IMG/VR virus record: IMGVR_UViG_3300046694_000291
Span: 1-64,000 of that record
DNA: 64,000 bases
Source: a virus
Strand: one strand, 5' to 3'
The position numbers and the translations under genes were made by a program. Below, one piece after another: positions 8,624-43,601 of the stretch (position 1 is its first letter; the number at the start of each line of letters is the position of its first letter). The notes under the pieces are model-generated. The model was not told the origin of the DNA. It worked only from the letters and a program-made list of their open reading frames with translations, and made no database searches.

Positions 8624-9553
8624 TTACAATTCCAGCGCCCGCCGGATCCCCTCCTCCAGGGTCACGGTCGGTGCGTAGATCGTCAGCATCCGGTCCGGGT
8701 CACCGACCCGGTACGCCACACCCTGCGGCATCTCTGGCATGAAGAGGACGCCCGGCAGGCCCCCGAGGTAGGTCCGGGGACGGAGCAGGACGGTCTCCCG
8801 GATCATCATCCGGACCAGGGTGCTGAACGGGGTCGGCTCACCGGTGCAGAGGTTCACCGGCGCCGCCGTCCCGTCCTCCGCGACCGCGAGCGTCCCGGCG
8901 ACGATGTCGTCCACGTGGATCCAGTCCCGGACACAGTCCCCGCACCAGACCGTGACCGGGTCCTCCCCGGCCTTGACCCGGTCGAGGATGGCCCGGAAGG
9001 GGTAGCTGGAGTCCTGGTCCTCGCCGTATCCGGAGAACGGCCGGACCACAGTGACCGGCACACCGGTCTTCCGCAGCCGGTCGGCCAGCAGCTCGCCGGT
9101 GACCTTGCTCCAGCCGTAGACCTCGTCCGGCTGACGGATCACATGGGGCAGGTCGATGTGATCTTCCATCAGACCTGTCGGTAGCCACCCGGGCCCCTGC
9201 TGAAGGTTGACCGGGTACGCGGCCGAGCTGCTGAAGTAGATCACCCGGCCCGGCCGCGCGACCGCCGCCCAGCGGAACATCTCCGCGTCGATGGACAGCG
9301 ACTCGGCCGTGGCCAGGGGGTCGTTCTCGATCGTCTCCCGGCCGCCGACCACGGCCGCGCAGTGGACCACGAGGTCGAAGTGCGGCCGGTAGGGGTTGCC
9401 GAGGTTGCGGATCTGGTGCCGGAAGTAGTCCCGGCAGTCCTGGGCGCTGGTCGCCTTGACGTCCAGGCCGAGGACGTCGTACCCCCGGCGCTTCAGCTCC
9501 GCCGAGAAGTGACGGCCGAGGAACCCCCGGTCGCCGGTGACGAGCGCCCTCAT
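8624..9553 (-). CDS. NAD(P)-dependent sugar epimerase/dehydratase (extended SDR), 309 aa
   Basis: The N-terminal Rossmann glycine motif TGDRGFLGRH (res. 6-15), the active-site Ser cluster (FSSSAAYP, ~107-114) and YGWSK (Y146/K150) define an extended short-chain dehydrogenase of the GalE/RmlB type. VRPFSGYGED and VDDIVAGTL are further family marks. It acts on nucleotide sugars in the cytoplasm. ATG 9553 overlaps the upstream stop (ATGA). Directly followed upstream by glycosyltransferase and methyltransferase genes, so it likely supplies or modifies the sugar they use. Confidence 0.85.
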   Translation of the reverse strand: MRALVTGDRGFLGRHFSAELKRRGYDVLGLDVKATSAQDCRDYFRHQIRNLGNPYRPHFDLVVHCAAVVGGRETIENDPLATAESLSIDAEMFRWAAVARPGRVIYFSSSAAYPVNLQQGPGWLPTGLMEDHIDLPHVIRQPDEVYGWSKVTGELLADRLRKTGVPVTVVRPFSGYGEDQDSSYPFRAILDRVKAGEDPVTVWCGDCVRDWIHVDDIVAGTLAVAEDGTAAPVNLCTGEPTPFSTLVRMMIRETVLLRPRTYLGGLPGVLFMPEMPQGVAYRVGDPDRMLTIYAPTVTLEEGIRRALEL

Positions 9554-9711
9554 CCCCGGACTCCCCGGAACTTGGGCTTCAGACCCTGGAGCACGCGTGC
9601 TGCGTCCTCCAGGCCCTGCCGGTAGCCCTGCTCCTCGTCGTCGGACCCGTCGGACTCGCCCAGCCGGGCCTTCAGCTTCTCGATCGTCTCCAGGTCCTCG
9701 TCGCTCACCAT
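9550..9711 (-). CDS. Small acidic helical protein, 53 aa
   Basis: ATG 9711 with GGGAGGACCGACC upstream; it overlaps the glycosyltransferase gene by 7 bases and the epimerase by 4. It is one or two helices rich in Glu/Lys/Asp (EDLETIEKLKARLGESDGSD). No family. Coupling inside the sugar block suggests a small partner, but this is inference. Confidence 0.58.
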   Translation of the reverse strand: MVSDEDLETIEKLKARLGESDGSDDEEQGYRQGLEDAARVLQGLKPKFRGVRG

Positions 9712-10301
9712 CGGTCGGTCCTCCCGCTCGTGTTGCCACCGTGCCAGTTCCAGACCCAGGTCCGGCGGTTCAGGTGCTCGATCTTCGCACCCTCCCCGAC
9801 CATGCGCTCCCAGGTCCCCCAGTCGTCGCAGGGGTTGTCCGGAGGTCCCTTCGGGGTGAAGCCGCCGACGTCCCACACCAGCTCGCTCCGCACCAGGACC
9901 GTGATCGGGATGTAGTTCTGGTACCGCAACGCCTCCTCGTTGAAGGGCTGGCCCTCGAACTGCGGGAACGGGTCCCAGCCCTGTGGGACGGTGAACCACG
10001 GGTACACCATGTCGGCCCCGGTCGCCTCCGCGTGCTCCATCAGCAGCCGGACGTGGTCGGTGTTCCACTGGTCGTCATCGTCGAGGAAGGCCATCCACTC
10101 CGTGTTGACGGCCGAGGCGGCGTGGGTGCGGTTGCGGGCCGACCCGGCGCGCTCGTGGTCGATGCGGATGCTGATCGCCTCGACCGGCCGCTCCTGCTGG
10201 AGGACCGAGTCGACGGCCCGGTGCAGGTGGGTCTGGACCCGGGGCGGGATGGCCGGGATGACCGCCGTGACCCCGGGCCGCAGGTGCCGCATACGGTTCA
10301 T
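9705..10301 (-). CDS. Glycosyltransferase family 2-like protein, 198 aa
   Basis: GT-A fold signs: N-terminal VTAVIPAIPPR, SVLQQERPVEAISIRID, RNRTHAASAVNTEWMAFLDD and the metal-binding DDDD (res. 74-77). A C-terminal acidic DDWGTWERM region suits the catalytic base. Shorter than many GT2 enzymes (~230-300) but complete in motifs. It would transfer a sugar from a nucleotide donor; the acceptor is unknown. It resembles the product at 16461-17108 in motif order, so the two may be paralogues. Confidence 0.75.
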   Translation of the reverse strand: MNRMRHLRPGVTAVIPAIPPRVQTHLHRAVDSVLQQERPVEAISIRIDHERAGSARNRTHAASAVNTEWMAFLDDDDQWNTDHVRLLMEHAEATGADMVYPWFTVPQGWDPFPQFEGQPFNEEALRYQNYIPITVLVRSELVWDVGGFTPKGPPDNPCDDWGTWERMVGEGAKIEHLNRRTWVWNWHGGNTSGRTDRW

Positions 10302-10942
10302 CGATGGACCGCCATCCAGAGCTGGTAGGTGTACGGGTTGTGCATGTGCCGTGTCGACTCCGGCACCAGCAGGTGGACCTCCAGCGGGGACCAGCCGTTC
10401 AGCCAGAGCATCTCGTGGATGTCCACCTGCCCCCAGCCCCAGTAGTGCTCCTCGTTGCCGACCGAGGCGGGCTCGTCCAGCGGGGTGGACAGGAACAGGT
10501 ACCGGCTGATCCCGGCGAGCCTCCGCAGCAGGCCGTCCGGGTCGGTCACGTGCTCCAGGGTCTCGCTCAGCACGAACAGGTCGACCGGCAGCACCTCGGC
10601 CGGGAAGGACCCGAAGTCGTCCAGGCTCTCCGGCAGCGGGCCTGCCTTCATGACCCGGACGTGCTTCCGGAGGGGGTACTCTCCCCGGGCCCCGATCAGG
10701 TCGCCGACGTAGGCCTGCTCCAGAAGGTCGTCCAGGCCCTTGAGGATGGCCGCGTCTCCGCAGGACAGGTCGGCCGCCGTCTTGATGTTGTTGCCGTACC
10801 GGCGAATCAGCTCCACCGAGGCGGCCACACGCTCCACGTGGTCCGGCCAGACCTCGTGCCGGTACCCCCTCGGGTACCTGCGCTCGTAGAACGCGATCTC
10901 CTCGGCCTCGGTCCGGAACGGCCGGAGCTGGTTACGCGCCAT
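10298..10942 (-). CDS. SAM-dependent methyltransferase (class I), 214 aa
   Basis: Motif I is AADLSCGDAAIL (res. ~56-67); the later strand DLFVLSETLEHVTDPDGLL is typical of Methyltransf_11/12-like enzymes acting on small molecules or sugars. RYLFLSTPLDEP follows. ATG 10942 overlaps the upstream gene by 11 bases. Within the sugar block it could methylate a sugar; a base-modification role is also possible. A second enzyme of similar layout lies at 51438-52043. Confidence 0.8.
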   Translation of the reverse strand: MARNQLRPFRTEAEEIAFYERRYPRGYRHEVWPDHVERVAASVELIRRYGNNIKTAADLSCGDAAILKGLDDLLEQAYVGDLIGARGEYPLRKHVRVMKAGPLPESLDDFGSFPAEVLPVDLFVLSETLEHVTDPDGLLRRLAGISRYLFLSTPLDEPASVGNEEHYWGWGQVDIHEMLWLNGWSPLEVHLLVPESTRHMHNPYTYQLWMAVHR

Positions 10943-11642
10943 CGCCGTACTCCTCCCGCACCAGCCGGAGGGCGGACTCGAAGCCGGTCCCGTCCCGGTA
11001 GGCGGTCCAGGCGTCCCGGTCGTGCCGGTCGGCCTCGGAGTCGTTGACCACCCGGTACCGCTCGTCCCACTCGGCCTTCCCGGCCACGGGGTGCAGATGC
11101 TCGATGATCACGTCGTCCCGGTAGACCAGGCCGCCGGTCCGCTCCCCCAGCTCCTTCCAGAAGTTGTCCAGGTAGAGGTGACGCATGACCTGCGGCGCCA
11201 TGCACCCGAGCGTCCGGATCATCCGGCTCTGCATGAAGACCGCCGTCGGCAGGTTGGCGCCCTGGAGCAGGTCGTTCCCGTAGACGATGCGGGGGCTGAG
11301 ACTGTCCAGCTCCCGGATCATCTCCGTGTCCCAGCCGTGCGTCCGGGGCAGGTGGTCGTCCCCCATGAAGCCCACATACTCGTACACCGAGGCACACCGG
11401 CGCGCAGCGAAGTTCAGCGGGTAGTTGAGCCCCCGGCCACCCCCCATGTCGGCGTAGACCAGCAGCCGGGGAATCAGGCCCGCACCCAACAGGCCCCGGT
11501 ACTCCGGCAGCTCGGGGTCATCCTGGTCGGCCACGAACAGCAGCGTGGTTCGCCCCAGGACGGTCTCTTCGAACGCCTCGGCCAGCCGGGCCGCGTTCTG
11601 CGGCCGTCCCCGGGTGGGGACGACCACGACAAGTTCGCTCAC
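10932..11642 (-). CDS. Glycosyltransferase-like protein (GT2-type), 236 aa
   Basis: Starts MSELVVVVPTRGRPQNAARL, a GT-A N-terminus. FVADQDDPEL and YVGFMGDDHLPRTHGWD give nucleotide/metal-binding acidic positions (DD at the expected spacing). Later IVYGNDLLQ and DNFWKELG are compatible with acceptor-side loops. The motif set is weaker than in 9705-10301. It heads the coupled sugar block (11642 to 8624) and overlaps the next upstream gene by 4 bases. Confidence 0.65.
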   Translation of the reverse strand: MSELVVVVPTRGRPQNAARLAEAFEETVLGRTTLLFVADQDDPELPEYRGLLGAGLIPRLLVYADMGGGRGLNYPLNFAARRCASVYEYVGFMGDDHLPRTHGWDTEMIRELDSLSPRIVYGNDLLQGANLPTAVFMQSRMIRTLGCMAPQVMRHLYLDNFWKELGERTGGLVYRDDVIIEHLHPVAGKAEWDERYRVVNDSEADRHDRDAWTAYRDGTGFESALRLVREEYGDGA

Positions 11643-12046
11643 CGCTTCCTCCTCGGAGCAGCCCGCTCACGGGTCAGCTCCATGTTGATCTGGGATTCCC
11701 TGGTCGTCCTGATCAGGTGCGCGATCGCCGTCGCCGCGATGGCGATGCCGATCAGCCCGATCAGGAGTGCCGTCATCACGACGGCGAGGATCATGGCACA
11801 GATCGTGCCGATGATCAGAGCCCCGAGCGCCAGCCACATGTACGGCAGCGCCTGCTGCGCGAGCGTCGGCTTGGGCGGCGGAAGCGGCGGGGGCGGCGGC
11901 GCGTAGTGGTGGTGCTCGTGGAATTGGATCACCTGCGGTGCCCCCGGGCCTGACTCGGCTCCGGGGAGCGAGCTGGTCGGGTTCATCCGCAGGTACTCCA
12001 CGATGGCCGAGAGCCGGTCCGTGCTGTTCGTGTCTTCCGTGGTCAT
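11639..12046 (-). CDS. Small Pro-rich, membrane-anchored protein, Spd-like, 135 aa
   Basis: Residues ~41-62 are His/Pro-rich (FHEHHHYAPPPPPLPPPKP), followed by two long hydrophobic segments (~68-90 and ~92-112) and a basic tail. That His/Pro-then-membrane layout resembles small proteins found beside traB in Streptomyces conjugative elements. The position 3' of a TraB/FtsK-like gene agrees. ATG 12046 follows GGAGAGATC. Function inferred from context only. Confidence 0.55.
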   Translation of the reverse strand: MTTEDTNSTDRLSAIVEYLRMNPTSSLPGAESGPGAPQVIQFHEHHHYAPPPPPLPPPKPTLAQQALPYMWLALGALIIGTICAMILAVVMTALLIGLIGIAIAATAIAHLIRTTRESQINMELTRERAAPRRKR

Positions 12047-12055
12047 GATCTCTCC

Positions 12056-12250
12056 TTACTTGATGCGGCGCCCGACCAGCAGCAGTGCTCCGCCGAGGAC
12101 TCCTCCGCACACGATGACGAACAGGGCCGCTCCGAGCGTCTGTGCGACGGTGAGCTTGCTGTCCGAGTCGGGGCCGACACCCGAGGCCACCATGAAGCCC
12201 GCGAGCAACAGCGCCGTCCACAGGACAGCCCTTCCGATCTTGCTGATCAT
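12056..12250 (-). CDS. Small two-helix membrane protein, 64 aa
   Basis: ATG 12250 (MISKIGRAVLWTALLLAGFM) with AAGGAG two to five bases upstream. Two hydrophobic helices (~7-24 and ~37-60) are separated by a short polar loop (GPDSDSKLT). Size and position near the traB-like gene suit a spread (Spd)-type or holin-like membrane protein. No family match by eye. Confidence 0.55.
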   Translation of the reverse strand: MISKIGRAVLWTALLLAGFMVASGVGPDSDSKLTVAQTLGAALFVIVCGGVLGGALLLVGRRIK

Positions 12251-12272
12251 CTCCTTCTCGCTTCCGTGAGGG

Positions 12273-12389
12273 GCCCTGACGCGTCAGGGCTGCGTGGCCA
12301 GAGAATGTCCCCAGGCCGGGACGGTCGTCAGGACCTTGATCAGACGTCTGATCAGCTCCTGACGGCCATCCTGATCAGGGGCTGATCAG
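12273..12389. repeat. Nested palindromes and four 8-bp repeats at the 3' end of the traB-like gene (clt-like candidate)
   Basis: CTGATCAG occurs at 12348-12355, 12371-12378 and 12382-12389, and TTGATCAG at 12336-12343. Two of these form the perfect 18-bp palindrome TGATCAGACGTCTGATCA (12337-12354), itself enclosed by CGTCAGGA/TCCTGACG (12326-12333 with 12357-12364). Another perfect 18-bp palindrome, GCCCTGACGCGTCAGGGC, is at 12273-12290. The last repeat overlaps the traB-like stop codon. Streptomyces TraB proteins bind 8-bp repeats (clt locus) near traB; a transcription terminator is the main alternative. Confidence 0.6.
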
Positions 12390-14377
12390 TCGCCTGACAC
12401 CTGCTGGGCGTCCGGGTACTGCCGGAGGATGGTGAAGATCTTTTTGCCCTTCGGGGGCCGGTACGCCCGCAGGACACCGGCCTCCACCAGCAGGTTGAGG
12501 TTGTTGTAGACCCAGCCGGGGGTCTTGCCGATCTCGGCCGGGAGGTCGGCCAGATCGTCGATCGTGATGTCCAGGTGGCCTCCCCTGGCCAGCACGTCCA
12601 GCCGGTTCATCAACCGGCGCCGGGCCTCCGCCACGTCCAGGCTGTTCTTGCTGGTGGGGGCTCCGAAATCGAAGCCGAGGCCCGGCGGGGGCGGTGTCAG
12701 GGGCTGTCCCGGGTCCGCTCCCGAGACCCCGGCGAACGGGTTCATCTCCTCTCCCTCCTCGTCGAACTCGTCTTCTTCCAGGTCAGCGTTCTCGTCCACC
12801 GGCATGAACCGGGGGTCGATGCCGTACGCCAGGCGCTCGTACGTGCCCGGGTCGATCTCGGCCCAGAACTGCCGGGAGCCCTCGATGCTGAACTGCTTCT
12901 CGGCCGGGGTCATGTAGATGGCCCGGCCGTCGACCGGCCAGTGGGTCTTGTCGGTGCCGACCACCTCGGCGTACAGGCTGCCCGGCGCGTCGCTCTTCCA
13001 CTTGGTCGGGTCGGCCCCGGCCTCCAGGCTCTCCCCCGAGAGGGCGTACTTGGCGTCCTGGTACTCGTTCTGGCCGTGCGCCAGGGACTCCACGAACTGC
13101 CCCCGGACCTTCCGGGGGATGTCGTCGTGCGGCATGGTCTGCATGCTGATGTTGAGCTTGACCCCGAGGCTGCGGAGCTTGCGGACCGCCTCGTAGACCT
13201 CCTCGTCCATCTCCATCAGCACGTCGGCCGCCTCCTCCACGTTCGCGAAGATGAACGGCACGCCGTGCAGCGTGTAGCACTCCGGTTCCCACTGCTTGTA
13301 ACCGGTGCCGCCGTCGGCCCTGACGAGAGAACCCAGCAGCTCGGAGCGGTACTGGACCACCGGCCCGGCCAGGTTCGTCAGGAGCTGACGGACCTGCTCA
13401 GCGTTCTGAGCCGTCAGCCCGAGCACCTCTTCGATGTCCCCGAAGGACTGCCGGAACTTGGCCGGGTCGCCGACCACCGGCACGATGTCCGTCCTCCAGC
13501 GCATGTCGAGGATCGCGGTGCAGATCGTCTCCGTCTTGCCCGAGCCGGTGACGCCGGTCGTCTTGCTGTGACCGACCGGCCGGGGGTTGTTGGGGTCGCT
13601 CGACCCGGGCATCCACCAGTTGATGTCCGAGCCGTCGGTCCGGCGGCCGAGGTACAGCGGAGCCGCCGCGCAGGACTGTCCCGGAGCCGAGGGGCCCCGG
13701 TACTTGACCGGCTTGGACGTGTCCGCCCGGCGGTTCATGACGACGTCGGCGACGCCCTCGTTCCCCGGGACACGAAGGATCTTCACCTGGTCCTTGTCCA
13801 CCCCCGCCACGGCCGCGACCTGGTCCCGTGTCCGCTGGGCGTCCCCGACCGTGTTGGGGGTGTCCAGGTGGTGACGGATGCGCAGCTCGTCCGGGGTGAC
13901 GGTGACGTCCCCCGGCGCGACCTTGGCGTTCTTGAACGCACCGATCTTGTCCCCGAGCCAGGACCCCGTGCTGTCCTTCGCCTTGTCCTTCTCGTGTCCT
14001 CCGGTGACACCGGCGTGCCGGATCATCCAGAAGCCGGACAGGGACACACCGCAGATGACATAGGCCTTGAGCATGTCCCCCGCCCACGGGACACCTGTCC
14101 CCGCGAACGCGATCCAGCTCAGGCCGAGGCCCACGGACAGCGTCGCGGTGACCCTCGTCTCGTGCTTCCGGCCCTGCCAAGTGCGCCAGGTGCCGTAGGT
14201 CATGCAGACGAAGATCCCGCCCAGGACCGCCATCCAGCGGCCGTCCCCACCCACTGTGAAGTGGATGGCCACGGCCACCGGAAAGGCAGCGAGCGTCAGC
14301 AGCCAGGGGGCCACGTACGGGGCTGCCTTCTCTCCGATGCGGAGCCCAAGAGAGCCCCGGCGGCCGTGACCAGCCAT
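12386..14377 (-). CDS. TraB/FtsK-like DNA translocase, 663 aa
   Basis: Four hydrophobic segments lie within residues ~18-120, then a soluble motor: Walker A GVTGSGKTET (~272-281) and VPVVGDPAKFRQS, then NVEEAADVLMEMDEE and an arginine-rich region. The last ~65 residues (RRRLMNRLDVLARGGHL..., DLPAEIGKTPGWVYNNLNLL) look like a winged helix. This membrane-motor-wHTH layout and length match Streptomyces TraB, which moves double-stranded DNA between mycelia, and FtsK/SpoIIIE. Neighbours are SpdB-like and small membrane proteins. Unusual in a tailed phage with head genes. ATG 14377 sits 1 base after the upstream stop. Confidence 0.75.
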   Translation of the reverse strand: MAGHGRRGSLGLRIGEKAAPYVAPWLLTLAAFPVAVAIHFTVGGDGRWMAVLGGIFVCMTYGTWRTWQGRKHETRVTATLSVGLGLSWIAFAGTGVPWAGDMLKAYVICGVSLSGFWMIRHAGVTGGHEKDKAKDSTGSWLGDKIGAFKNAKVAPGDVTVTPDELRIRHHLDTPNTVGDAQRTRDQVAAVAGVDKDQVKILRVPGNEGVADVVMNRRADTSKPVKYRGPSAPGQSCAAAPLYLGRRTDGSDINWWMPGSSDPNNPRPVGHSKTTGVTGSGKTETICTAILDMRWRTDIVPVVGDPAKFRQSFGDIEEVLGLTAQNAEQVRQLLTNLAGPVVQYRSELLGSLVRADGGTGYKQWEPECYTLHGVPFIFANVEEAADVLMEMDEEVYEAVRKLRSLGVKLNISMQTMPHDDIPRKVRGQFVESLAHGQNEYQDAKYALSGESLEAGADPTKWKSDAPGSLYAEVVGTDKTHWPVDGRAIYMTPAEKQFSIEGSRQFWAEIDPGTYERLAYGIDPRFMPVDENADLEEDEFDEEGEEMNPFAGVSGADPGQPLTPPPPGLGFDFGAPTSKNSLDVAEARRRLMNRLDVLARGGHLDITIDDLADLPAEIGKTPGWVYNNLNLLVEAGVLRAYRPPKGKKIFTILRQYPDAQQVSGD

Positions 14378-14378
14378 C

Positions 14379-14888
14379 TCAGTGACCTCCGAAGGCGTCG
14401 AAACCGCCCTTACCGGACCGGTGCGGGCGCTTGACCTGCGAGGACTCCAGGCTGTCCAGGAAGTCCTCCATGATCGCCCACGTCTTGACGGCGCCGGTGG
14501 CGGAGCTGAGCAGGGCCTCGGCCGAGGCCGAGTTGAGCTGACGGCCCATCCGGCGCAGGACCAGCTTGAGCTGACCCTTCTGGACCAGCGTCAGCCGTCC
14601 GTCGTCGCTCCGGTCACGGGCCGCCTGACGGGCAGCGGCGTCGAGCTGGGAGGCCGCCGCGTGGCTGAAGAAGGCCAGGCCCTGGGACAGGGCGCGCAGG
14701 CTCTCCAGGAAGTCGTACAGCTCGGTGGGGTCCATCACCTCACCTGCGGCGATGGTCTCCAGGTGCTGCTCCATGGTCTTCCGGGTCGGCTGGGGTGCCC
14801 CGGTCGTCCGGGAGCCCGTGGCCGAAGTACCGGCGGGCCTGCGGGGGGACGCCTTAGCGCCGGTCCCCGTACTGGGTGCTGTGGTCAT
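14379..14888 (-). CDS. Hypothetical helical protein of the conjugation-like block, 169 aa
   Basis: ATG 14888 (MTTAPSTGTGAKASPRRPAG) behind GAGAGGAACCAGGAACG. The first ~38 residues are Ala/Thr/Gly-rich and disordered; the rest is strongly helical (MEQHLETIAAGEVMDPTELY, LYDFLESLRALSQGLAFF, LVQKGQLKLVLRRMGRQL). It ends 1 base before the traB-like start. Perhaps a transfer accessory protein; no family recognised. Confidence 0.55.
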   Translation of the reverse strand: MTTAPSTGTGAKASPRRPAGTSATGSRTTGAPQPTRKTMEQHLETIAAGEVMDPTELYDFLESLRALSQGLAFFSHAAASQLDAAARQAARDRSDDGRLTLVQKGQLKLVLRRMGRQLNSASAEALLSSATGAVKTWAIMEDFLDSLESSQVKRPHRSGKGGFDAFGGH

Positions 14889-14907
14889 CGTTCCTGGTTC
14901 CTCTCGA

Positions 14908-15762
14908 TCAGGGCCGAGGGTGCTTGCCCTCGGCCCGGCGGATTGCAACGGACAGGCTGTTCGCCTTGGGCGGTGTCCCGTCCGGGGACACGAACTCCGC
15001 CTTCAGCGTGTCCTTGATCTTGTCCTTGTCCCACCCGGACAGCCACAGTTCGACCGCCCGGGAGGACAGGGACACGGGGTTCTGTCCCGCCGGTTGTCCC
15101 GGGGACGCCGCTGTCTTCTGTCCCTTGGTGAGGGACAGGACATTGGACGCTGCCGGGACAACCGGACGGGACACCGGCGGGACACTCGCCGGTACCGGTG
15201 ACGGGACGGGACGGGGACGTATCCGTGTCACCGTCGCCACCGGAGTCTGGATGTCCTGTCCCGTGTCCCGCAGGACACGGACAGGACGGGTGCGCTCGGC
15301 CGCCCCGAGAGCGGCGAAGTGCAGGAGGTGTCCGAGGATCAGCGGGGGGACCGAGGACACCGACACGACCAGCCAGAGCGGCGGCCGGGGCTCGGCCGAG
15401 ATGTACCCGGTCACGAACAGGTGACTGACCGGCTGCGCGGCCATGGCCAGCAGCAGGCTCAGGAAGGCCCCCCAGACGGACGAGGTCTTGCCCCGGGCGC
15501 CCTTGGGGAGCTGGGTGCTGATGACGGCCGCCAGGCCCGCGTAGAGGGTGAAGAGGCCGCTCAGGCCCCAGCTCATGCGGTAGCCCCAGCCGCTCAGGTC
15601 ACCGAGGTGCTGCTCACCCGGGGCGCACAGCACCAGAACCAGGATCGCGGCCACCGGGACACCCCACTGGCGGAAGGCGGACACCCAGCCGGGGACGTCC
15701 TGCGGCTCGGGGGTGACGCTGTCCTCGCCGGACACCCGGCGGGACACGAACGGGATGTACAT
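14908..15762 (-). CDS. SpdB/DUF2637-like membrane protein, 284 aa
   Basis: ATG 15762 follows the leader GACCACGGAAGGACAGGACC. Four predicted membrane helices (~30-48, ~62-80, ~92-112, ~125-150, the last ending PPLILGHLLHF) resemble the DUF2637 layout of Streptomyces SpdB. A long Pro/Val-rich cytoplasmic tail ends in a helical, HTH-like segment (SRAVELWLSGWDKDKIKDTL). SpdB proteins aid plasmid spread next to TraB. Its tail-coding part is densely packed with GGACA/TGTCC words. Family call moderate. Confidence 0.6.
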   Translation of the reverse strand: MYIPFVSRRVSGEDSVTPEPQDVPGWVSAFRQWGVPVAAILVLVLCAPGEQHLGDLSGWGYRMSWGLSGLFTLYAGLAAVISTQLPKGARGKTSSVWGAFLSLLLAMAAQPVSHLFVTGYISAEPRPPLWLVVSVSSVPPLILGHLLHFAALGAAERTRPVRVLRDTGQDIQTPVATVTRIRPRPVPSPVPASVPPVSRPVVPAASNVLSLTKGQKTAASPGQPAGQNPVSLSSRAVELWLSGWDKDKIKDTLKAEFVSPDGTPPKANSLSVAIRRAEGKHPRP

Positions 15763-15852: not shown

Positions 15853-15878
15853 AGGACCGGGGACATGTCCCCGGTCCT
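15853..15878 (-). terminator. Perfect 26-bp palindrome after the gene ending at 15902
   Basis: AGGACCGGGGACA (15853-15865) is followed directly by its exact reverse complement (15866-15878). It lies 23 bases past the leftward stop at 15902 and upstream of the SpdB-like gene. Strong hairpin, so probably an intrinsic terminator. It also contains two of the GGACA/TGTCC words that abound here. Confidence 0.6.
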
Positions 15879-15901
15879 GTCACCTGCGGTGTCCTCGTCG
15901 G

Positions 15902-16219
15902 TCAGATGTCCCCGAGGACAGCGGCCCGAGCCGCTCGCCTGTCCTCCGTCACCCGGAACTGCTCCTCCTCGGACACGACCCGGGACATCTCCCCCAGGAT
16001 GAAGGACAGCAGCGCCCTGTCCTTCGGGGACATGTCCTGGATGATCTCCCGGGTCGCCTCGGTCTCGTCCCGCAGGAGCGCGACGAACGCGAGCACCATG
16101 TCCAGGTCCTCGGTCCGCTCCAGCCGGATGTTCTGTCCGCCGGTCCCGGACGCGGCCGGTGACTCGGCCGACTGGGGCTGGATCTGCCGGTTCACTTGCA
16201 GCATGCGGAAAATGCTCAT
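15902..16219 (-). CDS. Hypothetical helical protein, 105 aa
   Basis: ATG 16219 follows ACGACCAAGGAGCACTGATC and promoter cassette copy B. The C-terminal 70 residues are helical and charged (RTEDLDMVLAFVALLRDETE, LLSFILGEMSRVVSEEEQF), suggesting a small helical bundle or dimer. No family recognised. It heads the leftward unit that may continue into the conjugation-like genes if the 15853 hairpin is leaky. Confidence 0.57.
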   Translation of the reverse strand: MSIFRMLQVNRQIQPQSAESPAASGTGGQNIRLERTEDLDMVLAFVALLRDETEATREIIQDMSPKDRALLSFILGEMSRVVSEEEQFRVTEDRRAARAAVLGDI

Positions 16220-16460: not shown

Positions 16461-17108
16461 CTACACACCCCGACCGGCGGTCGCGTGCCGGTTCGGGCTC
16501 GCGTTCCAGTTCCAGGTCACCGCGTCCAGGTGCTCGAAGATGGCCTTGGCGTCGTCCATGAGACGGATCAGGTAGTCCTCGTCCTCGCCCCGGTAGCGCG
16601 GACGGCCGTCCGTGTCGACGTCGTACCCGGGGCGGAAGCCGCCGATCTGCCGCACCAGCTCGGTCCGCACCAGGTGCGTCATCGGGATGAACGACCCGTG
16701 CAGGCGCAGGTGCGCCGCGTGGTCGGACGACCAGCGCAGGCCCCACGGCGAGACCGGGAAGCGGCCCTGGTGGGTGAGCGCGGTCGGGTCGGCTCCGCCG
16801 ATCATCCTCGGCCTCGGGTACACGAGGTCCGGCCGCCACGGCGACTGCTCCAGCACCCGCATGCAGGCCATCAGGTGGTTCGGCCGGAGGGTGTCGTCGT
16901 CGTCGAGCCAGGCGATCACGTCGGTCCCCACGCGCTCCAGCGCCCGGTTGCGGGCCGCGTGCGCGCCGGTGCGCTCACTGTCCCGCTCGACCACGATCTG
17001 GTCCGGCTTGCGGCGCTGGGCACGGACGGACGTCAGGGCCCGGTCCAGCAGGGCCTCCCGGCCGGGGATGGTCGGGACCACGACGGCCACGGTCAGATGC
17101 TTCTTCAC
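16461..17108 (-). CDS. Glycosyltransferase family 2-like protein, 215 aa
   Basis: GT-A features: VAVVVPTIPGREALLDRAL, SVRAQRRKPDQIVVERDSER, HAARNRALERVGTDVIAWLD and DDDD at res. 69-72. GEDEDYLIRLMDDA supplies the catalytic-base region. Motif order parallels the product of 9705-10301 (both include RTELV or RSELV, then GGF). It would transfer a sugar to an unknown acceptor. ATG 17108 overlaps the upstream small gene (ATGA). Separated from the other sugar genes by the conjugation-like block. Confidence 0.75.
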   Translation of the reverse strand: MKKHLTVAVVVPTIPGREALLDRALTSVRAQRRKPDQIVVERDSERTGAHAARNRALERVGTDVIAWLDDDDTLRPNHLMACMRVLEQSPWRPDLVYPRPRMIGGADPTALTHQGRFPVSPWGLRWSSDHAAHLRLHGSFIPMTHLVRTELVRQIGGFRPGYDVDTDGRPRYRGEDEDYLIRLMDDAKAIFEHLDAVTWNWNASPNRHATAGRGV

Positions 17109-31735: not shown

Positions 31736-32035
31736 ATGGACTGGAGTGAGCGACTGCTCACCGTGGTCGGACCGGGGGCTTCTGTGAGCGGTCTGGAGAC
31801 AGACCCCTTCACCGGAGCGGGGCTGACGATCTCTGTTCCCGAGCACTTTCCTGACAAGGACGAGGTGCTCTCGATCGCCCCGAATCACCCGTGCAGGCAT
31901 GGCGAAGGTACGGGCTGTGACTGTGTCTGGTGCCATGCCTGCTGGAAGTGGAGCCGGGACAACGGTGCGGTGGATGAGAACGGTTGGCACTACCTGAGCT
32001 GTATGCACCGGACAGGGTGGAGGAGCGAACCGTGA
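31736..32035 (+). CDS. Cys-rich zinc-binding-like protein, 99 aa
   Basis: ATG 31736 with GGGAGACAGACG upstream. The C-terminal half has CRHGEGTGCDCVWCHACWKW, a dense Cys/His cluster compatible with one or two zinc ions. It overlaps the next gene (GTGA), so it may be co-made with the replication fusion. No family. Confidence 0.55.
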   Translation: MDWSERLLTVVGPGASVSGLETDPFTGAGLTISVPEHFPDKDEVLSIAPNHPCRHGEGTGCDCVWCHACWKWSRDNGAVDENGWHYLSCMHRTGWRSEP

Positions 32036-35000
32036 CCACAGTAGAGGCACCTCCGGAGCTGTACGACTTCCACCAGCGTGAGCTGGAGGAGAGCTGCATC
32101 TCGGCCGAGGTGCAGACGGCCCGGCGGTACGAGACCCTGTACGGCACCGACGAGGACAAGGCCCGGCTCAAGGAGCTGCGGGTCCCGAGATGGGCCTGGC
32201 GGGACGAGACGGCGTTCCCGGCCCTGCTGCTGCCCATGTACCGGGTGACCGGCGAGGAGATCGGGGTCCAGTTCAAGCCCGCACTCCCGCAGGAGGCCCC
32301 CGGCGGCAAGCTCCAGAAGTACGCCAGCCAGTCCGGCACCCCGAACCGGCTGGACGTGCCGCCGGGCGTGGCGGACCTGGTGCGGGACCCGAGCGTGCCG
32401 CTCTGGATCACCGAGGGGATCAAGAAGGCGGACTGCCTGGCCAGTCACGGCAAGGCAGCGCTGACACTGACCGGCGTGTTCAACTGGCGCAGCAAGATGG
32501 GCACGCTGGGGGACTGGGAGGACGTCCCGCTCCAGGGCCGTGACGTGGTGATCTGCTTCGATGCCGACACCCGGGACAAGCGCACTGTCATGCTCGCGAT
32601 GCAGCGCCTCGGCCGCTGGCTGGAGAGCAAGCAGGCCCGGCCGCTGTACCTGATCGTGCCCCCCGAGGTGGAGCGGGAGGGCGGAGCCCGGGTCGCGGTC
32701 AAGGGGGTGGACGACTTTCTGTACGCGGGCGGGACGATGGACGGCCTGCGGGACGCGGCCGTGCGGCAGCTCGCCACCGGTACGCAGGACGCCGCGTTCA
32801 CCGACGCGATGCTGACGGACACCGTGGTCAACGAGACGCTGGAGGGCCGCTTCAAGTGGGCCAAGGGCCTCGGGTGGATGCAGTGGACAGGCAAGCTGTG
32901 GGAGGAGGCGAGCGACGCCTCCGTGGTGGAGGCAGTACGGCAGTGGGGGCTGGAGCAGTTCCAGCTCGTGCTGGACGAGCAGCGGCGCGACGCCAACCGT
33001 GACCTCGGGGCACAGATCGAGGGCTGGCGGTCCACCCTGAGCAAGGCCAAGATCAGCAACCTGGTCAGCCTGGCGCGGGGACCGCTGGAGTGCGCGGCGG
33101 TGGACTTCGACGCGGACCCGGACAAGCTCAACTGCCCCAACGGGATCGTCGACCTGCGCACGGGGACACTGACCCCGGCCGACCCCGACGCCCTGATGAC
33201 GAAGATCACGGGAGCGGACTTCGTCAGGAACGCCCGGCACCCGGACTGGGACAAGGCACTGAAGGCCCTGCCGCCGGAGGTCGTGGACTGGTTCCAGATC
33301 CGCATCGGGCAGGCGATCACCGGTCACACGACGAGCGACGGCAAGGTGCTCGTGTGCCAGGGCGGCGGCGCGAACGGGAAGAGCACGGTGTACGACGGCA
33401 TCGCCATGAGCGTCGGCAAGTACGCCGTCCAGGTGAGTGACCGGGCGATGCTCGGCGGGGCGAGCGACAACCACCCGACCGAGATCATGGACCTGATGGG
33501 CGCGCGGTACGCGGTTCTGGAGGAGACGCCCGAGGCGCGCAGGCTCGACACCAACCGGCTCAAGAAGCTCGCCGACACCCGGGAGATCACCGGCAGGCGT
33601 ATCCGGCAGGACCCGGTGACGTTCGAGGCCACGCACAGCCTGTTCATCAACTCCAACTACCGGCCGGTGGTCGACGAGACCGACCACGGCACCTGGAGGC
33701 GGCTGGCGCTGGTGGTGTGGCCGTACACCTTCCGGGAGCACCGGGGGCAGCTCAGGGGCCCGAACGACCGGCTCGGCGACCCGACCCTGCGGGAACGTAT
33801 CAAGCTCGACCCGCAGGCCCTTGAGGCGGCGCTCGCGTGGGCGGCCGAGGGGGCCAGGCGCTGGTACGAGCTGGAGAAGATCATGCCCCACCTGCCGGAG
33901 CGGGTGGAGGCCGACACCCTGGCGTGGCGCAAGGAGTCGGACCTGATCCTGGCGTTCATCGACGACCATCTCCAGTTCGACCTGGAGGCGTGCGTACAGG
34001 GCACGGAACTACGGACCGTGTTCAACACCTGGGTCAAGGAGAAGGGCGGCCGGGAGTGGGGCGACAAGACGTTCAACACCCGGTTCGGCGGTCATGACCT
34101 GTGCGCCCAGAACAACGTCGAATACAAGGTCATGAAGAACCCCCGGGACCTCAGCTCGCTCGGGGGCCGGGGGCCGCACCAGGGGATGGTCCGAGCGTGG
34201 CTCGGAGTGGCCTGGAGGGCTGAAGAGCCCGGATCAGGCGAAAGTAATGGGCAGGTAAAAGACCCGTTCAGCGGCCCTAACCATGATCGGGTTACGGGAG
34301 TTACACCTCCAGGTATAACGGAAAAGTTTCCTACGCGGGGAGCCGTTAACTCTCAAGGTGTAACTCCCGTAACCGGTAACAGTTGTACACCGAAAAACGA
34401 GGACCCGATGACCAAGGAAACCGACTACGGGACCGACCCGTTCGCGCCCGTCCAGGCGGCCCCGGAGGCCCCCTCTCCCGCCGTCTCCCGGCCTGCGCTC
34501 CCCGTCCTGGCCGGACCGGTCGGCTGGGACATCGAGGCCCCCTCGTCCAAGAAACTGTTCACGTTCCGTAGTCAGCCAGGTGCGCCGTACGCCCGGCTGA
34601 ACGGACTCGTGGACGAGAACGGACAGGAGGTGATCACCAACGACCCGGCCGAGCTGATCGAACTGCTGGAGCGGGCCCCGATGATCTACGGCCACAACAT
34701 CTTCCGGTTCGACCTGATGGCACTGGCGTGGCACCACGGGGCCGACTACGACCGGCTGGCGAAGAAGGCCTGGGACTCCTACGTGGACGAGGCGACCTGC
34801 GACCCCTCGGGCGGGCAGTACCTCGCCCCCTGGAACCAGAAGGGCTACTACGGGCTGAACGACGCCCTGGTGCGCCGGGGCGAGCCCGGCAAGACCGACC
34901 ACCTGCCCGAGCTGGCGAGGGAGTACGGTGACCCGTCCCTGGCGGGCAAGGCACGGGAGGAGGACGGGTACGAGAAGATCCCGCCGGACAACGAGCGTTA

Positions 35001-36399
35001 CCGGTCGTACCTGTCCGGTGACCTTGGGGCCACCGGCCGCCTGTACCGCAAGCAGCAGGCCGAGCACCCCGAGCGTATGGACTACCGGCGCCGGGAGATG
35101 AAGGTCGCCTGGATCCAGAACCGGATGACGCTGTCCGGCTGGAAGATCGACGTACCCCTGCTGCGGGCCCGGGTGGCCGAGGAGGCGGAGAAGAAGCAGG
35201 CCAGCCTCCAGTGGCTGGCCGAGAACGCGGGCGTCCCCCTGACCGAGACCAAGAGCCGTGGACGCGGCTCCAGGAAGGAGTTCTACGAGGAGGCGCGCAA
35301 GAGCCCCCTCGGCTCGAACGCCGGACGTGAGGCGCTGGAGCGGGCGTTCAGGGACCGGGGCCTGCCGTACGTGCTCACCACGGAGAGCGGCGTGCTCGCG
35401 CTCAACAAGGACGCCATGGGCGTGGGGAGCTACATGGTCGGCAAGGGCGCCAGTGGCCAGGTTCTGCCCGGCCTGCTGAACCCGCTGCGGAAGGAGCGCA
35501 CCCCGGACGCCGACTGGAACGCGATCGACGAGATGGCCGGTCATATCCGGACCGTCACCACCGCCGTGGCCAAGTACCAGGAGATCATGGACCACCTGAC
35601 CGGCGACCGGGTGCACGGCCACGTCGGCGAGACCCAGGGCTCGGGCCGGTGGGCGATGGTGAAGCCGAGCGTGACCAACCTCGGCAAGCGCGGCGGCAAG
35701 GTGATCCAGCGGGCGCCGTTCATCGCCGACGACGGCTGCGTGCTGATCGCCTTCGACCTCGACCAGGTGGACATGCGGGCGTTCGCCGGACACTGCGGCG
35801 ACCCCGAGTACGCGGGCATGTTCATCCGGGGCGAGGACCCGCACTCCATGATCGCCACGATGGTGTTCGGACGGGCCGACGGCGAATGGCGCGACCGGGC
35901 CAAGGCCTCCGGTCACGGCTGGAACTACGGCCTGAGCGTGAACGGGCTCGTGAACCAGGGCATCGAGCGGTCGCTGGCGGAGCGGTTCGACGCCGGTATG
36001 AACGAGAGCTACCCGGCCCTGTGCTCCTGGCGCAGCGAGGTGCGCAGCCGGGGCGAGTCCGGGGAGCTGCTGGACAACGGCTTCGGGCGCCTGATGCGGG
36101 TGGACCCCCGCCGGGCCTACACCCAGGCACCGGCCCTGATGGGCCAGGGAACGGCGAGGGACATCCTGGTCGAGGGGCTGCTGCGGCTGCCGGACGAGTA
36201 CGTGCCGTGGATGCGCGGCGTGGTGCATGACGAAGTGATCTTCAACGTTCCGGAGGACCGGGTGGAGGAGTGCATCACCACCGTGACCGCCGCCCTGACG
36301 TTCGACCTGGCCGAGGTGAGCACGCTGCACCCGGTGCCGATCACGACCGGGGCCAGCAAGGCCGCACACAGTTGGGACGGTTGCTATGTCAAGGACTGA
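32032..36399 (+). CDS. Primase-like / SF3 helicase / family A DNA polymerase fusion, 1,455 aa
   Basis: GTG 32032 (MTTVEAPPELYDFHQRELEE). N-terminus: TOPRIM/DUF3854-like primase region (LWITEGIKKADCLASHGKAA, VVICFDADTRDKRTVMLAMQ). Next an SF3/D5-type helicase with Walker A GGGANGKST (~443-452), ARYAVLEETPEARRLDTNRL, FINSNYRPVVDETD. Then a linker (~730-830) and a 3'-5' exonuclease start GWDIEAPSS (~831). Family A polymerase motifs A (FDLDQVDMR, ~1240), B (RAKASGHGWNYGLS, ~1290) and C (VVHDEVIFNV, ~1398). It would prime, unwind and copy DNA in one chain. An internal ATG (34408) with ACGAGGACCCG before it may make the polymerase separately. Confidence 0.85.
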   Translation: MTTVEAPPELYDFHQRELEESCISAEVQTARRYETLYGTDEDKARLKELRVPRWAWRDETAFPALLLPMYRVTGEEIGVQFKPALPQEAPGGKLQKYASQSGTPNRLDVPPGVADLVRDPSVPLWITEGIKKADCLASHGKAALTLTGVFNWRSKMGTLGDWEDVPLQGRDVVICFDADTRDKRTVMLAMQRLGRWLESKQARPLYLIVPPEVEREGGARVAVKGVDDFLYAGGTMDGLRDAAVRQLATGTQDAAFTDAMLTDTVVNETLEGRFKWAKGLGWMQWTGKLWEEASDASVVEAVRQWGLEQFQLVLDEQRRDANRDLGAQIEGWRSTLSKAKISNLVSLARGPLECAAVDFDADPDKLNCPNGIVDLRTGTLTPADPDALMTKITGADFVRNARHPDWDKALKALPPEVVDWFQIRIGQAITGHTTSDGKVLVCQGGGANGKSTVYDGIAMSVGKYAVQVSDRAMLGGASDNHPTEIMDLMGARYAVLEETPEARRLDTNRLKKLADTREITGRRIRQDPVTFEATHSLFINSNYRPVVDETDHGTWRRLALVVWPYTFREHRGQLRGPNDRLGDPTLRERIKLDPQALEAALAWAAEGARRWYELEKIMPHLPERVEADTLAWRKESDLILAFIDDHLQFDLEACVQGTELRTVFNTWVKEKGGREWGDKTFNTRFGGHDLCAQNNVEYKVMKNPRDLSSLGGRGPHQGMVRAWLGVAWRAEEPGSGESNGQVKDPFSGPNHDRVTGVTPPGITEKFPTRGAVNSQGVTPVTGNSCTPKNEDPMTKETDYGTDPFAPVQAAPEAPSPAVSRPALPVLAGPVGWDIEAPSSKKLFTFRSQPGAPYARLNGLVDENGQEVITNDPAELIELLERAPMIYGHNIFRFDLMALAWHHGADYDRLAKKAWDSYVDEATCDPSGGQYLAPWNQKGYYGLNDALVRRGEPGKTDHLPELAREYGDPSLAGKAREEDGYEKIPPDNERYRSYLSGDLGATGRLYRKQQAEHPERMDYRRREMKVAWIQNRMTLSGWKIDVPLLRARVAEEAEKKQASLQWLAENAGVPLTETKSRGRGSRKEFYEEARKSPLGSNAGREALERAFRDRGLPYVLTTESGVLALNKDAMGVGSYMVGKGASGQVLPGLLNPLRKERTPDADWNAIDEMAGHIRTVTTAVAKYQEIMDHLTGDRVHGHVGETQGSGRWAMVKPSVTNLGKRGGKVIQRAPFIADDGCVLIAFDLDQVDMRAFAGHCGDPEYAGMFIRGEDPHSMIATMVFGRADGEWRDRAKASGHGWNYGLSVNGLVNQGIERSLAERFDAGMNESYPALCSWRSEVRSRGESGELLDNGFGRLMRVDPRRAYTQAPALMGQGTARDILVEGLLRLPDEYVPWMRGVVHDEVIFNVPEDRVEECITTVTAALTFDLAEVSTLHPVPITTGASKAAHSWDGCYVKD
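34290..34374. repeat. 19-bp perfect inverted repeat inside the polymerase-fusion linker (origin-like)
   Basis: GGTTACGGGAGTTACACCT (34290-34308) pairs with AGGTGTAACTCCCGTAACC (34356-34374) over a 47-base spacer. The spacer has a second pair, TAACGG and CCGTTA. The flank (34240-34400) is A+T-richer than the rest of the gene and codes for a low-complexity linker. Repeated GTTAC/GTAAC words and CGGTAACAG follow. Could be a replication origin, a regulatory hairpin for an internal start at 34408, or a relic of gene joining. Confidence 0.6.
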
Positions 36400-42508: not shown

Positions 42509-42711
42509 TTCGACGAGCCGTGTTCGTGCTGCTGTCCCCGGCGGTGTTCCTGCCGTTCGGGCTGCTGGCCGTGTGGTCGGGGCTGCGCAGCGTCGGGTGG
42601 TGGCTGAGCACCGGGGTGTGGAAGCTCCCCGAAGAGTTGCCGCCGTCCCGCCTCGACGCGCTGGGTGTCCGGGTCTGGAACAGGCTCTCCTCCTGGACGG
42701 AGGCTTCATGA
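42505..42711 (+). CDS. Small membrane protein, 68 aa
   Basis: ATG 42505 overlaps the kinase stop (ATGA). One long hydrophobic region (RAVFVLLSPAVFLPFGLLAV) and a Trp-rich amphipathic part (GLRSVGWWLSTGVWKLPEEL). Its place between kinase and oxygenase is odd. No family recognised. Confidence 0.5.
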   Translation: MIRRAVFVLLSPAVFLPFGLLAVWSGLRSVGWWLSTGVWKLPEELPPSRLDALGVRVWNRLSSWTEAS

Positions 42712-43601
42712 TCAGCATCCGTGCCCGCACCCGGGTCCCCCAGGCAGAGCTGGACCTCAAGGTCGGCAAGGTGCTCGGCCCGGACAGCTTCAACGTTCTC
42801 ATGACCGGGCCGACCCGCGTCCTCCAGCCCAACGGCAAGCTGCTGTGCGTCTACCTGCCGGGGGCGATGAAGGGCTTCGTCACCGAGGAGCAGTACCAGA
42901 TCCTCCACGGCCTGCGCAGCCAGATGACCAACGCCCGGGGCGCGGCGTCCGGGTCGACCGCTGTGCGCGCCGGAGCGCAGAAGCGGCAGTACTACATGCA
43001 CGTCAGTAGCAACATCATCGGGGCCATCGACCCCATCAGCACGTACAAGTACTGCCGCCTGACCTCCTGGACCGGCGCGAACCTGCCGAGCTGGAAGGCG
43101 CTCCAGCCCGCCCTTAAGCGGGTGGGCGACCAGCTCCACACCCACGTGCCGGAGCGGTACGACGCGCAGATGGAGGAGATCGAGCAGACGCACCCGGACT
43201 GGGTCGTACCCGGCACCCCGTTCACCACCATCACGGTCAACAACACCTACCCGACCGGCATGCACACCGACAAAGGCGACCTCGACAAGGGCCTGAGCAC
43301 GATCTTCACCCTGCGCCGGGGCAGCTACACCGGGGGCACCTTCCTCTTCCCCGAGTTCCGCATCGGGGTCGACATGCAGGACAACGACCTGATCCTGATG
43401 GACGCGCACCAGTGGCACGCCAACACGGCCATCACCTGCGCCTGCGGCCGTAAGGTCACCCGGTACTGCGAGGAGTGCGGGGCCGAGCGGATCAGCGTGG
43501 TGAGCTACATGCGCACCAACATGACCCGCTGCGCGAGCGAGGCAGAGGAGATCAAAAGGGCCCAGGATCACCGCGAGAAGTTCAAGGGCGCGGGCCGTTA
43601 G
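42708..43601 (+). CDS. TET/JBP-family 2-oxoglutarate/Fe(II) dioxygenase-like protein, 297 aa
   Basis: The jelly-roll iron site can be read in the C-terminal half: GMHTDKGD (H-x-D, res. ~186-188), TIFTLRRGSYTGGTFLFPEF, then DAHQWHANTAI (second His, ~235) and RISVVSYM (2OG-binding Arg, ~261). VNNTYPTGMHTDKGDL and GGTFLFPE suit the TET/JBP clade, which hydroxylates the 5-methyl of thymine or methylcytosine in DNA. A CACGRKVTRYCEECGAE insertion may bind zinc. It would give 5-hydroxymethyl bases, the entry point for the other operon enzymes. Confidence 0.75.
   Translation: MISIRARTRVPQAELDLKVGKVLGPDSFNVLMTGPTRVLQPNGKLLCVYLPGAMKGFVTEEQYQILHGLRSQMTNARGAASGSTAVRAGAQKRQYYMHVSSNIIGAIDPISTYKYCRLTSWTGANLPSWKALQPALKRVGDQLHTHVPERYDAQMEEIEQTHPDWVVPGTPFTTITVNNTYPTGMHTDKGDLDKGLSTIFTLRRGSYTGGTFLFPEFRIGVDMQDNDLILMDAHQWHANTAITCACGRKVTRYCEECGAERISVVSYMRTNMTRCASEAEEIKRAQDHREKFKGAGR

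What the first reader, a model, noticed from the sequence alone, without database searches (positions are those of the whole stretch)
11639..15762. Conjugation-like TraB/SpdB block inside a tailed phage genome
Seen: a 663-aa membrane-anchored P-loop motor with a C-terminal winged helix, a four-helix SpdB/DUF2637-like protein and small His/Pro-rich or two-helix membrane proteins. Known: Streptomyces plasmids and ICEs use TraB, an FtsK-like double-stranded DNA pump, plus Spd proteins to move between mycelia. Inference: the phage may spread through mycelium as double-stranded DNA as well as by virions, or it took the block from a plasmid (a phage-plasmid state).
Basis: partly seen in the sequence, partly recalled or inferred. 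Interest (0 to 1): 0.85.

Follow-up and report, generated by a model that had tools for sequence, protein, structure and literature searches.

The report
Conjugation module built into soil phages
A group of tailed viruses of soil actinomycetes carries, as an old and conserved part of the genome, the DNA-pump gene set (traA, traB) and what looks like the matching DNA loading site that Streptomyces plasmids use to move as double-stranded DNA between filaments, so these viruses may spread by cell-to-cell DNA transfer as well as by virions.

Summary
The block is real. The 663-aa protein (12386-14377, -) is a full-length homologue of Streptomyces plasmid TraB, not a generic FtsK, though it scores below NCBI's equivalog cut-off. 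The "SpdB/DUF2637" protein (14908-15762) has the right position and four-helix topology but no detectable similarity to SpdB/DUF2637; its relatives lie in Streptomyces prophages. The order 4TM - traA - traB - 2TM - His/Pro membrane protein is kept in nearly all sister phages. In long relatives (75-99 kb) traB is almost universal (11 of 12). Phage TraBs form one clade that co-diverges with the phage primase (Mantel r 0.89), so the module is ancestral, not recent plasmid debris. New here: a repeat cluster at the 3' end of traB (TGATCA in the window's subclade, TGTCAG/CTGACA in others) occupies the position of the experimentally mapped clt of plasmid pWTY27, which has the same CTGACA core. One relative is a circular extrachromosomal replicon of a Streptomyces isolate. 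A phage that conjugates is known (pZL12), so this is a new variant of a known kind. Transfer itself is untested, and the window's phage lacks recognisable ParA and integrase.

The parts
12386..14377 (-). traB homologue, 663 aa: N-terminal membrane helices, FtsK-type P-loop motor (Walker A GVTGSGKTET, Walker B-type EEAAD), C-terminal winged helix
   Evidence: NF041214 E 1.1e-86, 16-639 vs 4-624/639; 50% identity to pS1D4-14.2; Foldseek top 15 all FtsK motor chains
14379..14888 (-). traA homologue, about 169 aa, soluble, directly upstream of traB
   Evidence: family profile vs plasmid TraA profile, hhalign prob 96.9, E 1.5e-10; NF041213 hits the same gene in 11 of 13 TraB-bearing phage records searched; window copy 55-57% identical to ones that hit
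12337..12390 (.). candidate clt (TraB loading site): four TGATCA repeats (12337, 12349, 12372, 12383; a fifth at 12244) from the last codon of traB into the gap
   Evidence: 5 observed vs 0.06 expected in 180 bp; top 0.2% of 130-bp stretches of the record; same position as mapped clt of pWTY27 (PMC3583192)
14908..15762 (-). four-helix membrane protein with C-terminal HTH-like helices; in the position of the DUF2637/SpdB gene of plasmids but not detectably homologous
   Evidence: 4 hydrophobic segments; homologues 56-59% in five Streptomyces prophages beside terminase/portal; no DUF2637/SpdB match
12056..12250 (-). 64-aa protein with two membrane helices, first gene after traB
   Evidence: small two-helix ORF at this spot in most sister phages, sequence poorly conserved
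11639..12046 (-). 135-aa His/Pro-rich N-terminus plus membrane segment(s)
   Evidence: present in all 13 compared loci with a HHHYAPP-like motif; dN/dS 0.27
15902..16219 (-). 105-aa conserved soluble protein, next gene upstream, possibly first gene of the operon
   Evidence: family 8, nine members among the 13 gene sets
15853..16040 (.). GGGGACATGTCCCC palindromes (15858, 16025) and diverged copies: candidate operator upstream of the block
   Evidence: the repeat finder; GACATGTC occurs only twice in the 84 kb record

Best explanation
The block is a Streptomyces-type double-stranded DNA conjugation module (TraA, TraB, clt and accessory membrane proteins) that is an ancestral, conserved part of a lineage of actinomycete phages, at least one of which is held as a circular phage-plasmid. 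Mechanism, by steps: (1, shown by homology) TraB is a membrane-anchored FtsK-type motor with a winged helix; (2, inferred from pSVH1 and pWTY27) the winged helix binds the repeats at the 3' end of traB, the clt, and assembles a hexamer on the circular phage genome; (3, inferred) TraB, with TraA and the small membrane proteins, pumps unprocessed double-stranded DNA across hyphal or septal membranes, so the genome spreads through mycelium without virions; (4, inferred) lytic growth uses the ordinary terminase, capsid and tail genes of the same genome.
For: TraB full-length match; TraA match by profile; plasmid-like order DUF2637/4TM - traA - traB - small gene (vs 49); repeats at the position of the mapped pWTY27 clt, with the same CTGACA core in other phages; TraB in 11 of 12 long records of the lineage; one TraB clade and co-divergence with primase r 0.89 p 2e-4 and capsid r 0.81 p 0.011; purifying selection; sister pS1D4-14.2 is a circular replicon in Streptomyces with portal, capsid, tail tape measure and ParA; precedent of a Streptomyces plasmid-phage with a transfer locus, pZL12.
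Against: No transfer experiment. TraB and TraA scores lie below NCBI equivalog cut-offs. No detectable SpdB/DUF2637 homologue. The window's record has no recognisable ParA or tyrosine integrase and only a weak ParB-like hit, so its own plasmid state is inferred from a sister. The TGATCA motif in the window's subclade was recognised after looking, and one sister (G045) has no repeats there. The TraB model is of low confidence (mean pLDDT 59).
Confidence: 0.68

Rival explanations
1. TraB works for vertical maintenance: it moves the phage-plasmid through septa and into spores of the same mycelium (segregation), not into new mycelia. Most members lack ParA, so an FtsK-like pump could replace a partition system.
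For: ParA found only in two of twelve phage records of the lineage tested; FtsK-type fold; plasmid spreading and stability are hard to separate in mycelium (PMC4170104).
Against: TraA and a clt-like site resemble transfer loci; plasmids with the same genes are conjugative, and the motor gene plus clt suffice for transfer in pWTY27.
Confidence: 0.17
2. The block is a phage function unrelated to conjugation, for example DNA uptake after injection, host takeover or exclusion of other elements, built on an FtsK-like motor.
For: FtsK/SpoIIIE-like proteins are filed as host-takeover genes in PHROGs (phrog_1358); the four-helix protein has relatives in prophages without TraB nearby.
Against: Full-length similarity is to plasmid TraB rather than to the phage FtsK-like family (E 1e-86 vs 7e-4); an adjacent TraA homologue and clt-like repeats are not expected.
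Confidence: 0.1
3. Recently captured plasmid genes without function in the phage.
For: Phages are mosaic; outside this lineage the TraB matches found here lie in plasmids.
Against: Same place and order across the lineage, co-divergence with the primase, dN/dS about 0.4.
Confidence: 0.02

Closest known systems
pS1D4-14.2 (NZ_CP041606, 98,815 bp, Streptomyces sp. S1D4-14)
   Same: Same lineage: syntenic terminase, portal, capsid, tail tape measure, primase, glycosyltransferase cassette and the TraA-TraB block; TraB 50% identical
   Different: Carries ParA and a tyrosine recombinase, which the window's record lacks; repeats after traB are weaker; no published analysis of it as a conjugative phage-plasmid was found in the library
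pWTY27 (Streptomyces sp. Y27 conjugative theta plasmid)
   Same: Order DUF2637 - orf - traA - traB - clt; the clt is the 3' end of the motor gene plus 159 bp with TGACACC repeats
   Different: 14 kb plasmid, not a tailed phage (though a neighbouring gene is annotated phage major capsid protein); TraB distant (25.9% identity); repeat in the window's subclade is TGATCA
pSN22 transfer operon (GntR regulator, TraA, TraB, Spd)
   Same: TraA directly before TraB; short repeats (GCACA type) after traB
   Different: GntR regulator and rolling-circle replication; different Spd proteins and repeat
pZL12 / phage ZL12 (Streptomyces plasmid-phage)
   Same: Tailed phage genome kept as plasmid, with an FtsK-type gene; transfer locus reported (cited in PMC3583192)
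   Different: Its FtsK-like gp71 is not in the phage TraB clade, no TraA hit, much lower TraB score (22 bits)

Membership tests
Streptomyces plasmid TraB (NF041214) | full-length similarity to the family model | tested here: met
   residues 16-639 on 4-624 of 639, E 1.1e-86; chromosomal FtsK-type genes match only about 170 positions
Streptomyces plasmid TraB (NF041214) | NCBI equivalog cut-off of 800 bits | tested here: not met
   291.7 bits; complete phage relatives 284-392; two plasmid TraB-type proteins also miss it (692.6 and 419.3). Hence filed as a sister clade of TraB homologues, not as the equivalog
Streptomyces plasmid TraB (NF041214) | Walker A and acidic Walker B, membrane-anchored N-terminus, C-terminal winged helix | tested here: met
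Streptomyces plasmid TraB (NF041214) | clt with short repeats recognised by the winged helix | tested here: inconclusive
   repeat cluster found at the pWTY27 clt position in most sisters; binding not testable; absent in G045
Streptomyces plasmid TraB (NF041214) | hexameric dsDNA pump, pore, conjugative transfer | not testable with these tools
   needs biochemistry and mating assays
Plasmid TraA (NF041213) | model match at the curated cut-off (80 bits) | tested here: not met
   best phage relative 40 bits, window copy none
Plasmid TraA (NF041213) | homology and position directly before traB | tested here: met
   hhalign prob 96.9 E 1.5e-10; position in all 13 loci
SpdB / DUF2637 | sequence similarity to PF10935 or SpdB proteins | tested here: not met
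SpdB / DUF2637 | four-helix membrane protein encoded beside traA-traB | tested here: met
   a works-like resemblance only
Phage-plasmid | tailed-phage genes plus extrachromosomal replication | tested here: inconclusive
   phage genes and D5-type primase present; circular replicon reported for sister pS1D4-14.2; window lacks ParA and integrase hits

The most novel reading that the evidence does not exclude
A whole lineage of actinomycete tailed phages depends on two transmission routes: virions between colonies, and TraB/clt-driven transfer of naked double-stranded phage DNA through mycelium, with the conjugation module as a core phage function whose clt repeat has co-evolved with the TraB winged helix.
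Probability: 0.4. Interest if true: 0.85.

Novelty: new variant of a known kind. Interest (0 to 1): 0.68.

Why it matters
Phage-plasmids are generally taken to move between cells only in virions; the 2024 survey read here (PMC10879196) reports relaxase or oriT mainly in elements that have lost phage genes. A lineage that keeps both a full virion gene set and a relaxase-free dsDNA conjugation module would show stable dual transmission. It also predicts TraB-driven mobilisation of host DNA by a phage, in a genus where transducing phages have remained elusive (PMC6722414). A cultivated member, pS1D4-14.2, makes the question directly testable.

Tried and rejected
DUF2637/SpdB homology of the four-helix protein: Pfam per member, PF10935 across genomes and hhalign against single proteins and a five-member profile, all negative. 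AlphaFold of that protein gave mean pLDDT 51 and was not used. His/Pro protein against pSN22 and pIJ101 Spd proteins: nothing. TraA profile against pIJ101 KilB as a negative control: nothing. An exact 8-mer same-strand repeat scan missed the clt candidate; 7-mers on both strands at the traB 3' end found it. The pSVH1-type repeat (GACCCGGA, recalled from memory) is scattered and not clustered in the record. DNA-level and tblastn searches of cultured phages with the block found no relative. PDB sequence search gave only weak FtsK hits plus spurious subtilisins. The original pZL12 paper and the 2015 Spd-complex paper (Thoma et al.) are not in the library.

Full report
Setting. The window is the first 64 kb of an 84,106-base viral record. 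The right half holds terminase, portal, major capsid, tape measure and tail genes on the + strand, a 1,471-aa protein with D5-type primase-helicase and family A polymerase domains lies at 31984-36399, and the block in question lies in a leftward operon-like run at about 11.6-16.2 kb. No relative is found among cultured phages by DNA or by TraB tblastn, but the capsid matches many actinophages distantly.

TraB. The 663-aa protein matches NCBIfam plasmid_TraB over its full length (E 1.1e-86, 291.7 bits), below the equivalog cut-off of 800. With the same model, chromosomal FtsK-type genes of five Streptomyces genomes give about 65 bits over 170 positions, so this is not a generic FtsK. Walker A (GVTGSGKTET) and an EEAA Walker B are conserved with plasmid TraBs. 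The AlphaFold model is weak (pLDDT 59) but shows N-terminal helices and a better-predicted C-terminal winged helix, and its 15 best PDB matches are all FtsK motor chains, with low TM-scores.

TraA. NF041213 (plasmid TraA) hits this gene in 11 of the 13 TraB-bearing phage records searched (E 1e-4 to 1e-11). The window's copy is not hit directly but is 55-57% identical to copies that are. The negative control gave nothing.

The four-helix protein. It has four hydrophobic segments and sits where plasmids such as pWTY27 keep a DUF2637 gene, but no test shows homology to DUF2637 or SpdB. Close relatives of its membrane part (56-59%) occur in five Streptomyces prophages beside terminase and portal, without TraB in the fetched stretch. 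In other sister phages the same slot holds different membrane proteins with little or no similarity to it. It is best called a positional and topological analogue.

Conservation. In 13 compared loci (two nearly identical) traA, traB and the His/Pro protein are always present in the same order, a protein in the four-helix slot was called in 12, and a small two-helix ORF usually follows traB. Among records of at least 75 kb sharing the capsid or primase, 11 of 12 including the window carry TraB; G020 does not. Shorter records say nothing. Phage TraBs form one clade with support 1.0; pairwise identities follow those of the primase (Mantel r 0.89, p 2e-4, 11 genomes) and the capsid (r 0.81, p 0.011, 6 genomes). 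dN/dS against the nearest relative is 0.39 for traB, 0.37 for traA, 0.27 for the His/Pro protein and 0.33 for the primase (simple NG86, so approximate). The module is therefore ancestral and under purifying selection.

Candidate clt. At the stop codon of traB and in the following gap the window has TGATCA at 12383, 12372, 12349 and 12337, about one or two helical turns apart, and a fifth at 12244. Five copies in 180 bp compare with 0.06 expected; without choosing a motif, the stretch is in the top 0.2% of the record for repeated 7-mers. Sisters have TGATCA (G041, G004) or TGTCAG/CTGACA (G007, G010, G011, G048, fewer in G044 and G052) at the same place; G045 has none and pS1D4-14.2 is weak. In plasmid pWTY27 the experimentally mapped clt is the last 16 bp of the motor gene plus 159 bp, with TGACACC repeats (PMC3583192), and four of the other plasmids examined also have CTGACA- or TGACAC-type clusters there. 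The repeat type goes with the recognition-helix region of TraB (TPxW(V/I/L)Y with TGATCA, RxW(V/I)YxEL with TGTCAG), though shared ancestry could explain this. TraB of pSVH1 is reported to read 8-bp repeats through this domain (cited).

Lifestyle. pS1D4-14.2 is syntenic with the whole record and was reported as a 98,815-bp replicon marked C, read here as circular, in a soil Streptomyces (PMC6753273). It has ParA and a tyrosine recombinase; among the other phage records only G044 has ParA, and G044 and G052 have an integrase. The window's record has neither, only a weak ParB_N match, so its plasmid state is inferred.

Verdict. A TraA-TraB-clt type transfer module is a core feature of a tailed-phage lineage. 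Homology, order and conservation are shown; DNA transfer is inferred. The Streptomyces plasmid-phage pZL12 with a transfer locus (cited in PMC3583192; original not held) is prior art for the general idea; its motor is not in this clade.

Noticed in passing
window 31984-36399 (+): One 1,471-aa protein joins a DUF3854 / D5-N / DUF5906 primase-helicase region with a family A DNA polymerase domain.
   Followed up: partly
window 42708-43601 (+): Tet/JBP-type 2-oxoglutarate oxygenase domain (E 5e-17), suggesting DNA base modification.
   Followed up: no
window 8624-11642 and 16461-17108 (-): NAD-dependent epimerase, methyltransferase and glycosyltransferase-like genes flank the tra block and recur in most sister phages.
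   Followed up: no
L003:6723-7172, and G044 and G052 next to traB: Stand-alone proteins resembling the TraB C-terminal winged helix lie beside traB in the pS1D4-14.2 subclade, possibly regulators of the same site.
   Followed up: no
window 15853-16040: GGGGACATGTCCCC palindromes upstream of the four-helix gene; GACATGTC occurs nowhere else in the record.
   Followed up: partly
NZ_CP109332 65374-65949 and NZ_CP108279 41004-41900: Two other circular Streptomyces plasmids with a related capsid gene carry weak matches to the TraB model (open frames of 750 and 937 codons).
   Followed up: no
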